Of a stretch of 31,902 nt of DNA, positions 2,664-6,321 are shown piece by piece. The stretch covers positions 1 to 31,902 of IMG/VR virus record IMGVR_UViG_3300025083_000130; one strand, 5' to 3'. The notes below the pieces were generated by a model that was not told where the DNA came from, searched no databases, and saw nothing but the letters and a program-made list of their open reading frames with translations. Position 1 is the stretch's first letter. Each line of letters opens with the position of its first letter. This DNA is from a virus. Position numbers and translations under genes: made by a program.

Positions 2664-2749
2664 ATCCATAACCATACCCCTTTATAGGGGGGTATGGATA
2701 TGTATGGATATGGGCAGCACCTATGGATTACCATCCATACCCATCCATA
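2664..2749. repeat. Cluster of six ATCCATA/TATGGAT repeats with hairpin; candidate origin
   Basis: Six exact copies of a 7-bp word lie in 86 bp: ATCCATA at 2664-2670, 2733-2739 and 2743-2749, and TATGGAT at 2693-2699, 2703-2709 and 2722-2728. Two same-orientation pairs are spaced by exactly 10 bp, one helical turn. Between them is a 9-bp perfect inverted repeat, CCATACCCC (2672-2680) with GGGGTATGG (2689-2697), around an AT-rich loop. The cluster straddles the stop codon of the prim-pol/helicase gene. Such iteron-like arrays often bind a phage initiator; an operator for the downstream nuclease gene is the alternative. Confidence 0.55.
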
Positions 2750-4616
2750 TCTCATTAACTAACCCATTGAAAAAGCTGACACTCTCAGATATGGATGTCC
2801 CCTTCTTAAACTGATACCAGTCATTCGACGACATTTTGCCGATTTTGGCCTCAACAGCACTTCTCCAGTCCGCTTCACGTATGCCGGGTGCGCCATCTTC
2901 ATCGTGTTCTGTCCAATTACCAGCCGCCAACATCTCTTGCAGCGTGTCGATTGCTGTCTGTTGTTTGGCACTCCGGCGCGACTTCGGCTTGGGCAATTCG
3001 TCCATTATGTCCAAAACCAAGCTGCTTTGCTCTTGTGCAAATGCGTCTTGCACAAATCGCACCTCACGCGCATTTAGGGCAATAGGCTCGGCCTCTTGCA
3101 CATCTTTCTGCTTTGCTACCTTTACAACGACAGATTGCGTCCCCTCAGTGCGTTTAATGGCAACAGAGGTATCAACAGCCCCCAACAAAGAAGAACTGCC
3201 ACGCAAGCCCTTGTCGCTGTCTTTGCCGCTATGGTGAACAGCCAGCACAGTGCAGTCGAACCATTCCTTCATTAGGTCGCATGAGCGGATAAACATACCC
3301 ATATCGGTTGCTGAGTTCTCATCAGCACCCGACCCGGCGAATGACCTTGCCAGCGTATCCACTACGATAAGGTCGGGTGATACACCGCCGAGCGTATCCT
3401 CGATGGCGTGTCTCAGTTGTAACACATCTGGAGCATCTTCCATCGCCATACCGATGGGCGTAGTAACGGCATAGAACGGCACACCATCGTCATCTAGCTG
3501 CCTATCCCTATGCCAAGCCTCCGCCCTTACGGCGATGCCGGACTGGCCTTCCATAGCCAAATAAACGACTGCGCCTTGTGATGTGGGTCGCCCGTTCCAG
3601 TCGATACCGTGTGCAATCGACAACGCCCAATCTATCGCTAGGAACGATTTGAATGTTGCTGGTGCGCCATACAGCACCGCAAAGCTGTTCTCGATTAGGT
3701 AATCCGCCACCATAAAGCTGGGCGGAGGGGTAGCCCTTAGTTCTCCGAGCGTCTTGACGCGGATTTTCCGCTCGACAGGAACTGCCGTATCGCTTGCGGC
3801 ATTGCTTGGATGCGGTTGTGTTTTGTCTGGCGCAATATGAAGGTCTGCAATCTTGCCTTCTCTTGCTCGGATAATAGTGCTGGTAACTTTCTTTCGGAAC
3901 TCATCTATTCCTCTCCCCTCTTGGTTCAAATCGCCTGTGCGGCTTCCTACCTTTATTTCATATGTCGGGTAAACTTCTTGCTCCATCCACTGCATAGTCG
4001 GAAAAGTGCCGTGCTTGCGGAAATAGTCGGATATAGAAGCCAGCACCATACTAGCCATATAATGTTCACGGCCATCGACCCGCCGACCAAAAGCATCAAA
4101 AGCACCGCTGCCCATAGGAACGTCAAGGCTTGCAGCAGCCACTCCGGTGGATTGCGCTGCAACCTTTGGAGGAAATATGGCGAAGTCTTCGTCATTTACC
4201 CAACGATAACCTGTGCTTGAGGGGTGTATGACGTAACCGCCGTCACCTCTAACGTCAACACAGCCGTCAATACCAGCACGATTTCTAATGCCATCAGAGT
4301 GCCGATAATAATAGTGCCATCCACCTGATTGCGTCTCAGATACCTTAGTGATGCCCAAAAGTTCCGCATTGTCCTTTACCCAGTCCTTACCTTGTTTTCC
4401 GTCTCTTACGTCAATGTCGATGACCGACACGCCGGAGACTTCTCCGGTTGGCATACCAATAAGAGCAGCACCCGGCAAGGAAAATAACCGCTCAATCTCA
4501 TCTGGGTCTTGCGTAGCCGCCTTGAACCCGCCCTGACAGACAGGACGCTTCTTTACATCGCACGGGAAGACAGGGTAATCCTCTGCCACCTCAAGTGCTG
4601 TGCTTATAATATCCAT
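2721..4616 (-). CDS. Bifunctional prim-pol / RecA-like (RepA-type) helicase
   Basis: A 631-residue replication protein. Residues 1-155 resemble the bifunctional DNA primase/polymerase (prim-pol) domain: VIDIDVRDG around 65-73 with paired Asp, SGGWHYYYRH around 97-106 and DVRGDGGYVIHPS around 121-133. Residues about 290-500 form a RecA-like ATPase with Walker A GAPATFKS (317-324), Walker B DLIVVDT (415-421) and HHSGK near 461-465. It probably makes primers and unwinds DNA at the origin while host polymerase elongates, since no phage polymerase gene is present. It starts by TAATG coupling to the methyltransferase gene, and its last codons lie inside the ATCCATA repeat cluster. Confidence 0.85.
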   Translation of the reverse strand: MDIISTALEVAEDYPVFPCDVKKRPVCQGGFKAATQDPDEIERLFSLPGAALIGMPTGEVSGVSVIDIDVRDGKQGKDWVKDNAELLGITKVSETQSGGWHYYYRHSDGIRNRAGIDGCVDVRGDGGYVIHPSSTGYRWVNDEDFAIFPPKVAAQSTGVAAASLDVPMGSGAFDAFGRRVDGREHYMASMVLASISDYFRKHGTFPTMQWMEQEVYPTYEIKVGSRTGDLNQEGRGIDEFRKKVTSTIIRAREGKIADLHIAPDKTQPHPSNAASDTAVPVERKIRVKTLGELRATPPPSFMVADYLIENSFAVLYGAPATFKSFLAIDWALSIAHGIDWNGRPTSQGAVVYLAMEGQSGIAVRAEAWHRDRQLDDDGVPFYAVTTPIGMAMEDAPDVLQLRHAIEDTLGGVSPDLIVVDTLARSFAGSGADENSATDMGMFIRSCDLMKEWFDCTVLAVHHSGKDSDKGLRGSSSLLGAVDTSVAIKRTEGTQSVVVKVAKQKDVQEAEPIALNAREVRFVQDAFAQEQSSLVLDIMDELPKPKSRRSAKQQTAIDTLQEMLAAGNWTEHDEDGAPGIREADWRSAVEAKIGKMSSNDWYQFKKGTSISESVSFFNGLVNEIWMGMDGNP

Positions 4617-5674
4617 TATAATGCTCCCTCAAGCTGCTTAATTACTCTTCCGATTTGTTCTGGGATTTGCGGGACGACCGCGTTACCCAATGCTTTAATT
4701 CTGTGTGACCGATTGGAAACCCCATTAGCCACTCGACCCACGTTGGGTTCAGCTGCCCAGAGTGTCGGCTGTGACCCGCCACCACTTCTTCTAAATTGCC
4801 CTTGTTTCGATTGGCTAACTGTTCCCTGTTCTTGTCCGTGATTGTCGGGTGAACCTTGTTTGCCCTCGGTGTCGGCCACATCCTTACGTCCGTTCTCAGG
4901 CTCTTGCCCTGACCGCCGCCCGTCGTCTCCTGACTGTCCGCTGCGTTGGGTGTTGCCCACATCTGAGGACTGCTCTGTATTTCCTTCCAAGCCTTCACTG
5001 TGTTCTCGTCCACTTGCTCCCGAAGGTTGGACGGCCACGCTCTGCCCTTCCGCGCCACTGTCGCTTGCTTTACTAGCGACTGCTCCGACCTCTGTGGTAG
5101 GTCGTCCATCGCGCAAGGTGTCGCCCACAGTGGCGGCTCTCGCCACCCACTGTTCATGCTGGGGGACATCTGATTTCCCTTCGCTGTTGGCGTGTGCAAC
5201 AATCCATACTCTGTCTCGTCTGTGCGGGGCATCGACACCGCAAGCTGGAATAACAAATGGCCTTGCGGCGTAGTCTTCGGCTTCCAAGTCAGATAACACC
5301 TCGTCGAGGCCCATGCTGATGTGTCCAGCAACATTCTCGAAAATTCCCCAAGTGGGTCTGATTTCTTTAATAAGCCGATACACTTCAGGCCAGAGGTGAC
5401 GGTCATCTTCCGCGCCTCGCTGCTTCCCGGCAACACTGAATGGCTGGCACGGGTATCCCCCGACGATGACATCTGGTCGAACAATCCCATCTGCTCGGAG
5501 TTGCTCTCCAGTGAGGCTTCGGACATCATCGTAGATTGGTGTGTCAGGCCAATGTCGTCTAAGGACTTCTTGGCAGTATCTTTCGATTTCGCAGAACGCG
5601 ACTGTTTCAAATCCGGCTTTTTCGAGGCCAATGCTAAATCCCCCTATACCACTAAATAAATCTAATACTTTCAT
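4616..5674 (-). CDS. DNA (cytosine-5) methyltransferase
   Basis: A 352-residue C5 cytosine methyltransferase. Motif I DLFSGIGG lies at 5-12 (SAM binding), motif IV GGYPCQPFS at 72-80 with catalytic Cys76, motif VI ENV at 113-115, motif VIII PHRRDRVWIVA near 150-160 and motif X RIKALGNAVVPQI near the C-terminus. The target-recognition region between VIII and X is hydrophilic, low-complexity and repetitive (VxDT/VGNT units). No partner restriction enzyme is visible, so it probably protects phage DNA from host restriction. A good ribosome binding site (AGGGGG, 4 nt before ATG) directly follows a pseudoknot-forming leader. A second frame is open almost throughout. Confidence 0.9.
   Translation of the reverse strand: MKVLDLFSGIGGFSIGLEKAGFETVAFCEIERYCQEVLRRHWPDTPIYDDVRSLTGEQLRADGIVRPDVIVGGYPCQPFSVAGKQRGAEDDRHLWPEVYRLIKEIRPTWGIFENVAGHISMGLDEVLSDLEAEDYAARPFVIPACGVDAPHRRDRVWIVAHANSEGKSDVPQHEQWVARAATVGDTLRDGRPTTEVGAVASKASDSGAEGQSVAVQPSGASGREHSEGLEGNTEQSSDVGNTQRSGQSGDDGRRSGQEPENGRKDVADTEGKQGSPDNHGQEQGTVSQSKQGQFRRSGGGSQPTLWAAEPNVGRVANGVSNRSHRIKALGNAVVPQIPEQIGRVIKQLEGAL
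4642..5631 (-). CDS. Overlapping +1-frame ORF within the methyltransferase gene (possible dual coding)
   Basis: A 330-codon open frame shifted +1 relative to the methyltransferase. Its longest form starts with TTG; in-frame ATGs follow at the MM of TMMSEASLES and at MGLFDQM, and none has a convincing ribosome binding site. The product is not random-looking: it has four (L/M)(W/H)xTPxA units (LHTPTAKG, LWATPCAM, MWATPNAA, MWPTPRAN) and a C-terminal LNPTWVEWLMGFPIG segment, which I recall as recurring in database proteins linked to phage cytosine methyltransferases. It may be a real overlapping gene, a frameshift product or a by-product of constrained codons. Translation is unproven. Confidence 0.35.
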   Translation of the reverse strand: MASKKPDLKQSRSAKSKDTAKKSLDDIGLTHQSTMMSEASLESNSEQMGLFDQMSSSGDTRASHSVLPGSSEARKMTVTSGLKCIGLLKKSDPLGEFSRMLLDTSAWASTRCYLTWKPKTTPQGHLLFQLAVSMPRTDETEYGLLHTPTAKGNQMSPSMNSGWREPPLWATPCAMDDLPQRSEQSLVKQATVARKGRAWPSNLREQVDENTVKAWKEIQSSPQMWATPNAADSQETTGGGQGKSLRTDVRMWPTPRANKVHPTITDKNREQLANRNKGNLEEVVAGHSRHSGQLNPTWVEWLMGFPIGHTELKHWVTRSSRKSQNKSEE

Positions 5675-5685
5675 GTTTCCCCCTA

Positions 5686-5738
5686 TCCCTCGTAAAAGTC
5701 GGGTCGGCGCAGACGAGGGAGTTAAACCGCGCCGACCC
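5686..5738 (-). promoter_or_regulatory. Predicted H-type pseudoknot in the methyltransferase leader
   Basis: On the transcript, GGGUCGGCGC (5738-5729) pairs perfectly with GCGCCGACCC (5710-5701), 10 bp. The 18-nt loop contains UCCCUCGU (5720-5713), perfectly complementary to ACGAGGGA (5693-5686), 8 bp. The second stem ends one base before the UAGGGGG ribosome binding site. This is a classic H-type pseudoknot, as in small translational riboswitches. The GC stem followed by GACUUUU could also act as a weak terminator between the ssDNA-binding-like gene and the methyltransferase. A GGUUUAAC stretch after the first arm loosely resembles SAM-II, but the conserved SAM-II 3' core is not seen. Confidence 0.6.
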
Positions 5739-5751
5739 TTCTTGCTAGTGC

Positions 5752-6321
5752 TTAGAACTCGTCGTCCGCACTAGCTGCTGGCTGCGCTATGGAGGAAGGA
5801 AGCGCGCCAGTTTCTTCATCATCATCCAGTTCGGACGGACGGTCAATCCAACTCACAATCTTGAGCGTTGGGATTGTCGTTGAGCCTTTGCCAACCTTAG
5901 TTGGCACAGCACCCGAAAACTCCACAACCGGGACTTGTCCACCTTTGTCCCCTGCCGCTTCGTAATCGCTATAAAGCTGCTGGATGCTCATCGTTGCACC
6001 AGCACCATTCGTTGCCCATTCTGCGACTGGTTCTTCATCACCAAACGCAGACTTGCTCATGATGCAGACCTTGAAGCCACGCTTCCATTGGCCTTCGCCA
6101 TCAGGGCGAGCCGCTGGTGCTTCCAAGCTGGCATCCATCACCCATTCAGGTGCGCCACCCTCAGTAAACAAGCACCAGCCTGTTTTAATATTAGCAAGGT
6201 CGAAGACCGCCTTGCTCAAGTTGACCTGACCGTCGCGGTTAGCCCAACTTGATGTGGATGCCATATACTTCACATAAGGCTTATAATTTCCACTGCCACC
6301 ATTTCCAAAACTTAAAGGCAT
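5752..6321 (-). CDS. Probable ssDNA-binding / recombination accessory protein
   Basis: A 189-residue protein of mainly beta character. The N-terminus has YKPYVKYMAST, followed by a Trp- and Gly-rich body (GWCLFTEGGAPEW around residues 47-60, RGFKVCIMSKSAFG around 82-96) and a long acidic, disordered C-terminal tail ending ADDEF. Mid-size DNA-binding body plus acidic tail is the layout of phage SSBs such as T7 gp2.5. It lies between a RecB/Cas4-like nuclease and the methyltransferase/prim-pol genes, where an SSB would be expected. No family was recognised with certainty, so the role is inferred from layout and position. Confidence 0.5.
   Translation of the reverse strand: MPLSFGNGGSGNYKPYVKYMASTSSWANRDGQVNLSKAVFDLANIKTGWCLFTEGGAPEWVMDASLEAPAARPDGEGQWKRGFKVCIMSKSAFGDEEPVAEWATNGAGATMSIQQLYSDYEAAGDKGGQVPVVEFSGAVPTKVGKGSTTIPTLKIVSWIDRPSELDDDEETGALPSSIAQPAASADDEF

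What the first reader, a model, noticed from the sequence alone, without database searches (positions are those of the whole stretch)
5675..5738. Perfect H-type pseudoknot directly before the methyltransferase ribosome binding site
Seen: a 10-bp perfect GC-rich stem (5738-5729 with 5710-5701) and an 8-bp perfect stem from its loop (5720-5713) to 5693-5686. The second stem ends one base before UAGGGGG and the ATG at 5674. Established: small H-type pseudoknots at ribosome binding sites include SAM-II, SAM/SAH and preQ1 riboswitches, some common in alphaproteobacteria, and the downstream enzyme uses SAM. Inference: a translational control element, perhaps sensing SAM or SAH or bound by the methyltransferase itself. 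Known SAM-II and SAM/SAH consensus sequences do not match well, so it would be a new class or a protein-binding site.
Basis: partly seen in the sequence, partly recalled or inferred. Interest (0 to 1): 0.75.

Follow-up and report, generated by a model that had tools for sequence, protein, structure and literature searches.

The report
Conserved RNA pseudoknot after ssb gene
The messenger RNA of this uncultured phage, and of dozens of distant relatives, folds into a conserved pseudoknot at the junction between a single-strand-DNA-binding-like gene and whatever gene comes next, so it is a real, undescribed RNA element of the phage replication operon and not a sensor belonging to the methyltransferase gene.

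Summary
The pseudoknot is real. On the minus strand it has a 10-bp stem (12 bp with two further pairs), an 8-bp second stem, and ends one base before UAGGGGG. No comparable fold appeared in shuffles. It is a conserved RNA: 38 distinct homologous leaders keep the same architecture, compensatory changes occur throughout both stems, and non-Watson-Crick stem-1 pairs are G·U on the mRNA strand (22) and never A·C.

The link to the methyltransferase is wrong. The element follows an SSB-like gene (window 5752-6321), in two clades whose SSB-like proteins share about 30% identity. The gene after it varies: C5 or N4/N6 methyltransferase, Mom, PAPS-reductase-like, or the primase-helicase directly. Methyltransferase homologues without that SSB gene have no pseudoknot. 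In L010 the order is methyltransferase-SSB-pseudoknot-primase. Rfam has no match.

Best reading: a cis-acting element at the ssb/primase junction that lowers expression of the next cistron relative to SSB, at the spot where several more distant relatives carry intrinsic terminators. Conservation, strand and position are shown; the regulatory effect is inferred. SSB-mediated feedback, as in the T4 gene 32 operator, is the most interesting rival. SAM/SAH sensing is very unlikely.

The parts
5752..6321 (-). Upstream cistron: SSB-like protein P0002 (189 aa, acidic C-terminus ...SADDEF), the gene the pseudoknot travels with
   Evidence: Translation; homologues with conserved acidic tail; no Pfam/PHROG hit; fold evidence weak
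5739..5751 (-). 13-nt spacer between ssb stop codon (5754-5752) and S1; 9-16 nt in clade A (13 in half), 4-10 nt in clade B
5727..5738 (-). Stem 1, 5' strand (10 perfect pairs 5738-5729 plus 2 inner pairs)
5721..5726 (-). Loop 1 (UUUAAC)
5713..5720 (-). Stem 2, 5' strand UCCCUCGU (pyrimidine-rich, anti-SD-like; 86% pyrimidine over 38 members)
5701..5712 (-). Stem 1, 3' strand; abuts stem 2 with no linker
5694..5700 (-). Loop 3 (GACUUUU); U-run not conserved among members
5686..5693 (-). Stem 2, 3' strand ACGAGGGA (purine-rich, SD-like)
5679..5684 (-). Shine-Dalgarno AGGGGG of the next gene, outside the pseudoknot
4616..5674 (-). Downstream cistron in this phage: C5-cytosine DNA methyltransferase; an exchangeable gene in this slot
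   Evidence: PF00145 E=4.9e-46; replaced or absent in relatives
2721..4616 (-). Prim-Pol/AAA_25 primase-helicase, the next conserved replication gene; directly follows the pseudoknot in relatives without an inserted gene
   Evidence: L059, L101, L102, L108, L111, L113, L127, L142, L099

Best explanation
It is a conserved cis-acting mRNA pseudoknot of the ssb/primase intercistronic junction. It folds in the polycistronic transcript a few nucleotides after the ssb stop codon and just before the Shine-Dalgarno of the next cistron. Its most likely job is to set a step in expression: SSB, needed in excess, is made freely, while ribosome passage or loading onto the next cistron (primase-helicase, or a DNA-modification gene inserted in front of it) is held lower by the coaxially stacked pseudoknot sitting at the 5' edge of the ribosome binding site. 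It occupies the place where several more distant relatives carry an intrinsic terminator. Shown: the structure, its covariation, RNA-strand specificity, position and linkage to the ssb-like gene. Inferred: that it lowers downstream expression, and that it does so at translation.
For: Pseudoknot right after the ssb-like stop codon in 18 distinct clade A sequences (plus a near-duplicate) and in 59 of 73 clade B loci. 38 distinct members show double changes at every S1 position 1-14 and at S2 positions 1-9; swapping 3' arms between members drops pairing to 56% (S1) and 71% (S2). Independent count on a MAFFT alignment: 8 pairs with both-side change vs 1.8 in shuffles, 0/500; slid controls 44-51% paired vs 92%. 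S1: 224 cells, 22 G·U, 0 A·C, so the mRNA strand is the selected one. Downstream gene varies while the pseudoknot stays. L010 was found by a structure-only scan of 1.36 Mb and again follows an ssb homologue. SD lies 0-15 nt after the pseudoknot in every member examined. Several more distant ssb-like homologues have a terminator (hairpin plus T-run) at the same place (14 of 42).
Against: No expression data. No intrinsic-terminator signature in the pseudoknot itself, so equivalence with the terminators is by position only; many other non-pseudoknot homologues have neither. Partition-function folding shows no consistent change in tail (SD) accessibility with or without S2, so blocking must be steric, not by SD pairing. 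Loop 3 is only 3-5 nt in many clade B members against an 11-14-bp S1, so some S1 or S2 pairs must open in the full pseudoknot there. The SSB identity of P0002 rests on acidic tail and synteny. Pairing of own arms is 100% partly because the finder demanded it.
Confidence: 0.5

Rival explanations
1. Autogenous operator: the SSB-like protein binds the pseudoknot when in excess over ssDNA and then represses the following cistron (and perhaps destabilises its own mRNA), a relative in function of the T4 gene 32 operator.
For: The element tracks the ssb-like gene across two distant clades. The precedent is exact in kind: T4 gp32 binds an H-type pseudoknot in its own leader (PMC3014915; PMC535899).
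Against: It lies after ssb, not before it; no comparable pseudoknot was found in front of ssb in the window. No conserved loop sequence that looks like a protein-binding site; conservation is of pairing. P0002 is not proven to bind ssDNA.
Confidence: 0.2
2. mRNA processing or stability element: the stacked ~20-bp helix blocks 3'-5' exonucleases or is cut by RNase III, giving ssb mRNA a stable 3' end and separating its decay from that of the replication genes.
For: Position directly after ssb; 12-bp GC-rich S1 always present; relatives keep some GC-rich hairpin there. A phage precedent for cleavage near the end of an ssb gene is RNase E in T4 gene 32 (PMC3014915).
Against: A plain hairpin would do; it does not explain why S2 is conserved by compensatory change, nor why its 3' strand abuts the next SD in all members.
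Confidence: 0.17
3. Leaky intrinsic terminator: S1 plus the following U-rich loop 3 ends part of the transcription after ssb.
For: Terminators at the same place in more distant relatives; GC-rich S1; four U in the window's loop 3.
Against: Only 1 of 19 pseudoknot members has a T-run of 5 or more after S1; several have 0-1 T in the first 8 bases (L111, L112, L061).
Confidence: 0.07
4. DNA-level element: the inverted repeats act as ssDNA, for example as a recombination or insertion site for the exchangeable DNA-modification genes next to it.
For: The slot after the pseudoknot is a hot spot for exchange; in L112 a direct repeat AGGGAATAAGGTGATGGTGGA flanks the inserted gene.
Against: 22 G·U and 0 A·C in S1 on the mRNA strand indicate selection on RNA. 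The pseudoknot is equally kept where nothing is inserted.
Confidence: 0.03
5. One reading: a SAM/SAH-sensing or methyltransferase-bound leader.
For: In this window the next gene is a C5 methyltransferase.
Against: Methyltransferase homologues without the ssb-like gene have no pseudoknot; the pseudoknot stands before primase, Mom or other genes in most relatives; in L010 it lies after the methyltransferase and after ssb; no Rfam match.
Confidence: 0.02

Closest known systems
T4/T2/RB69 gene 32 translational operator pseudoknot
   Same: H-type pseudoknot with coaxial stems in the mRNA of a phage ssb gene; replication-protein context (PMC3014915, PMC535899)
   Different: T4: 67 nt upstream of the ssb start, followed by an A+U-rich gp32-binding stretch, controls ssb itself. 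Here: after the ssb-like gene, just before the SD of a different gene; larger and GC-rich; no binding shown
STAXI motif (candidate RNA, PMC2864571)
   Same: Pseudoknot found near single-stranded DNA-binding protein genes and other DNA-handling genes
   Different: STAXI is a tandem array of two or three pseudoknots, frequently with UUCG tetraloops; here a single pseudoknot with no UUCG-capped repeat; no Rfam match
SAM-II, SAM/SAH and preQ1 riboswitches
   Same: Small H-type pseudoknots at ribosome binding sites (known from the literature, not tested beyond Rfam)
   Different: No model match; no association with SAM or queuosine genes; SD not inside the pseudoknot; sequence of stems and loops not conserved as an aptamer core would be
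Intrinsic terminators after ssb-like genes in more distant relatives
   Same: Same place, GC-rich hairpin a few nt after the ssb stop
   Different: Pseudoknot members lack the U-run and have a second conserved stem
timP mRNA pseudoknot (PMC11228461)
   Same: Pseudoknot acting on translation initiation in a bacterial mRNA
   Different: There a long-range pseudoknot essential for translation and targeted by an antitoxin sRNA; no relation in sequence or context

Membership tests
SAM-II / SAM-SAH / preQ1 riboswitch (Rfam) | Match to the family's covariance model | tested here: not met
   No match at gathering score for the window; only an unrelated chance hit at E up to 10 for 5600-5800; none at E<=0.1 in 8 homologous loci
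SAM-II / SAM-SAH / preQ1 riboswitch (Rfam) | Recurrent association with genes of the ligand's pathway | tested here: not met
   Downstream genes: methyltransferases, Mom, PAPS_reduct, primase-helicase, others
SAM-II / SAM-SAH / preQ1 riboswitch (Rfam) | Ligand binding | not testable with these tools
   Needs in-line probing or ITC
T4 gene 32 type SSB operator | Pseudoknot in the leader of the ssb gene itself | tested here: not met
   Pseudoknot lies after ssb; no comparable one upstream of ssb in the window
T4 gene 32 type SSB operator | Binding and repression by the phage SSB | not testable with these tools
   Needs binding and translation assays
STAXI | Pseudoknot repeated at least twice in tandem | tested here: not met
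   Single copy at each locus
Intrinsic (Rho-independent) terminator | GC-rich hairpin followed directly by a U-run | tested here: not met
   Hairpin yes, U-run of 5 or more in 1 of 19 pseudoknot members
Recoding (readthrough or frameshift) pseudoknot | Open extension frame beyond the stop codon | tested here: not met
   Next in-frame stop after 0, 2, 3, 4, 7 or 9 codons in several members
Single-stranded DNA-binding proteins (P0002) | Match to a known SSB family or fold | tested here: inconclusive
   Conserved acidic DDEF/DLF tail; no Pfam/PHROG match; Foldseek only weak hits: bacterial SSBs at E~0.5, a Gordonia phage SSB at 3.6e-3, phiC31 RDF at 1.5e-2

The most novel reading that the evidence does not exclude
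A new family of phage RNA regulators in which an SSB-like protein controls the next replication or DNA-modification gene by binding a pseudoknot placed after its own stop codon, a downstream counterpart of the T4 gene 32 operator, kept while neighbouring anti-restriction genes come and go.
Probability: 0.2. Interest if true: 0.75.

Novelty: new variant of a known kind. Interest (0 to 1): 0.6.

Why it matters
It is a well-supported RNA element (dozens of members, strong covariation) that is not in Rfam release 15, in uncultured phages that are absent or nearly absent from isolate collections. It marks the ssb/primase junction as a place where phages place either a terminator or a pseudoknot, and makes the question of how SSB dosage is set against primase-helicase directly testable with short reporter constructs. 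It also shows that reading a leader's function from the gene just downstream can mislead when that gene is an exchangeable cassette.

Tried and rejected
SAM/SAH or methyltransferase control (gene association fails; no Rfam hit). Stop-codon readthrough or frameshifting (extension frames not conserved). Intrinsic terminator (no conserved U-run). Hiding or freeing of the main SD by stem 2 (SD lies outside the pseudoknot; accessibility change inconsistent). DNA-strand function (G·U but no A·C). MAFFT alone does not align stem 2 correctly across members, so covariation was also counted on structure-anchored alignments. Genome-contig scan with the SSB alignment found no relatives; INPHARED had none for P0002 and one for the clade B SSB (MW202711), which has hairpins but no clear pseudoknot. 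A DNA pattern scan of viral contigs brought mainly unrelated GC-rich loci. L098 looked like a candidate by eye but did not score as the same architecture. Literature: no paper found describing this element; the 2017 224-motif paper is not held.

Full report
Observation. On the minus strand, after the stop codon of the gene 5752-6321, comes GGGUCGGCGCGG UUUAAC UCCCUCGU CUGCGCCGACCC GACUUUU ACGAGGGA U AGGGGG AAAC AUG. With two inner pairs added, stem 1 is 12 bp (5738-5727/5712-5701) and stem 2 is 8 bp (5720-5713/5693-5686) with no linker between them, the form that allows coaxial stacking. No perfect 10+8 pseudoknot appears in 30 Markov shuffles of the window. None of 1500 dinucleotide shuffles of each of 19 homologous 100-nt regions reaches the observed score. 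Rfam has no match.

Homologues. A search of IMG/VR with the downstream methyltransferase and with the upstream protein P0002 gave a clear split. Close and distant homologues of P0002 are followed by the same architecture. Methyltransferase homologues lacking the P0002 gene in front have no pseudoknot: a structural scan of all loci held at that point (1.36 Mb, both strands) found it in the methyltransferase loci only where P0002 homologues also lie (L002, L003, L010-L012). L010 was decisive: the scan found a pseudoknot there after a distant P0002 homologue (31% identity), with the order methyltransferase - ssb-like - pseudoknot - primase. Searching with that protein brought 72 loci of a second clade. 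In one search, 58 of 73 such loci scored as having the pseudoknot right after the ssb-like stop, and L178, not in the coordinate table, makes 59. Three others are cut off there, and only four other distinct hits lay elsewhere in 404 kb.

Covariation. In 18 clade A members placed by structure, stem 1 has 224 pair cells, none non-standard, 22 G·U and no A·C on the mRNA strand; 12 of 15 pair positions show changes on both sides, as do 6 of 9 in stem 2. Over 38 distinct members from both clades every stem-1 position shows double changes, and so do stem-2 positions 1-9; exchanging 3' arms between members lowers pairing to 56% and 71%. An independent count on a MAFFT alignment of nine clade A sequences gives 8 pairs with both-side changes against 1.8 in shuffles (0/500), and 92% of cells paired against 44-51% for slid versions, although MAFFT misplaces stem 2 in three rows. 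The pairing, not the sequence, is conserved, and the G·U/A·C imbalance says it is selected in the mRNA. The own-arm pairing of 100% is partly imposed by the finder; the arm-swap, shuffle and slide controls are not.

Anatomy across members. Stem 1 is 11-14 bp, loop 1 is 1-7 nt, the linker is 0-2 nt, stem 2 is 6-12 bp, and loop 3 is 5-11 nt in clade A and 3-10 nt in clade B. The 5' strand of stem 2 is 86% pyrimidine, so its 3' strand is purine-rich and SD-like. The distance from the ssb stop to stem 1 is 9-16 nt in clade A and 4-10 nt in clade B. An SD always lies between the pseudoknot and the start codon, in a tail of 8-22 nt. In several clade A members (L055, L057, L059, L060, L097, L102) the SD sits in the loop of a second small hairpin whose stem also varies in step.

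What lies downstream. The pseudoknot is followed by a C5 methyltransferase (window, L055, L056, L060, L062), Mom (L057, L058, L112), an N4/N6 methyltransferase (L061; after a small ORF in L064), an HTH protein (L097), or the Prim-Pol/AAA_25 primase-helicase directly (nine distinct members). In clade B it is followed by a Toprim/AAA_25 primase directly or by Mom (L203), a PAPS-reductase-domain protein (L200) or others. The slot is therefore a hot spot for DNA-modification genes, and the methyltransferase in this window is one visitor among several.

Relatives without it. More distant ssb-like homologues often carry an ordinary intrinsic terminator at this place, for example GCCCCCGGAAACGGGGGC followed by a T-run (14 of 42 by the simple rule). 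Pseudoknot members nearly all lack the T-run.

Mechanism. Shown: structure, conservation, RNA strand, position, linkage to ssb. Inferred: a step-down or insulating role for the following cistron, acting sterically at the 5' edge of its ribosome binding site. I rank this first because the same junction bears terminators in relatives and because the pseudoknot abuts but does not contain the SD. Folding with and without stem 2 gives no consistent change in SD accessibility, which argues against a riboswitch-like SD switch. Feedback by the SSB-like protein itself, in the manner of T4 gp32, fits the linkage and cannot be excluded.

Caveats. P0002 is called SSB-like from its conserved acidic tail and its place beside primase-helicase genes; no family matches, and fold searches give only weak hits to SSBs and to the phiC31 RDF. 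Loop 3 in many clade B members is too short to span all of stem 1 in one rigid helix (my estimate from A-form geometry), so some terminal pairs there must open. Members within each clade are related, so counts of sequences are not counts of independent events.

Noticed in passing
window 4642-5631 (-), inside the methyltransferase gene 4616-5674: A 329-aa ORF in the +1 frame of the methyltransferase gene is conserved: it matches PHROG 1008 ('DNA methyltransferase', E=1e-33) and is 35% identical to the overlapping ORF of L010. A dual-coding region or a second gene in another frame.
   Followed up: partly
L112 4600-5330; L111 and L113 without insert: The Mom gene after the pseudoknot is flanked by a direct repeat AGGGAATAAGGTGATGGTGGA (RBS plus start of primase); genomes without the insert have one copy. 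Suggests how modification genes enter this slot.
   Followed up: partly
L055, L057, L059, L060, L097, L102, just before the start codon; L249 (MW202711) 3683-3704: Small hairpin with the SD in its loop (ACAAAC-GTGGGA-GTTTGT, AAACG-TGGGAG-CGTTT, AAAAATG-TGGGAG-CATTTTT); stem sequence varies, pairing kept.
   Followed up: partly
window 2672-2697 (-), after the primase gene; similar sequence after the L108 primase: Hairpin CCATACCCC...GGGGTATGG with further repeats of TATCCATA around it in the gap before the gene 2223-2636; a second conserved intercistronic structure.
   Followed up: no
window 5752-6321 (-): P0002 has no family match; its best solved-structure neighbour is the phiC31 recombination directionality factor (Foldseek prob 0.95-0.99 but TM about 0.34), with SSBs weaker.
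   Followed up: partly
clade B loci L192-L214: Genes in the slot after the pseudoknot include a PAPS-reductase-domain protein (L200) and Mom (L203), so the modification-gene hot spot is shared by both clades.
   Followed up: partly
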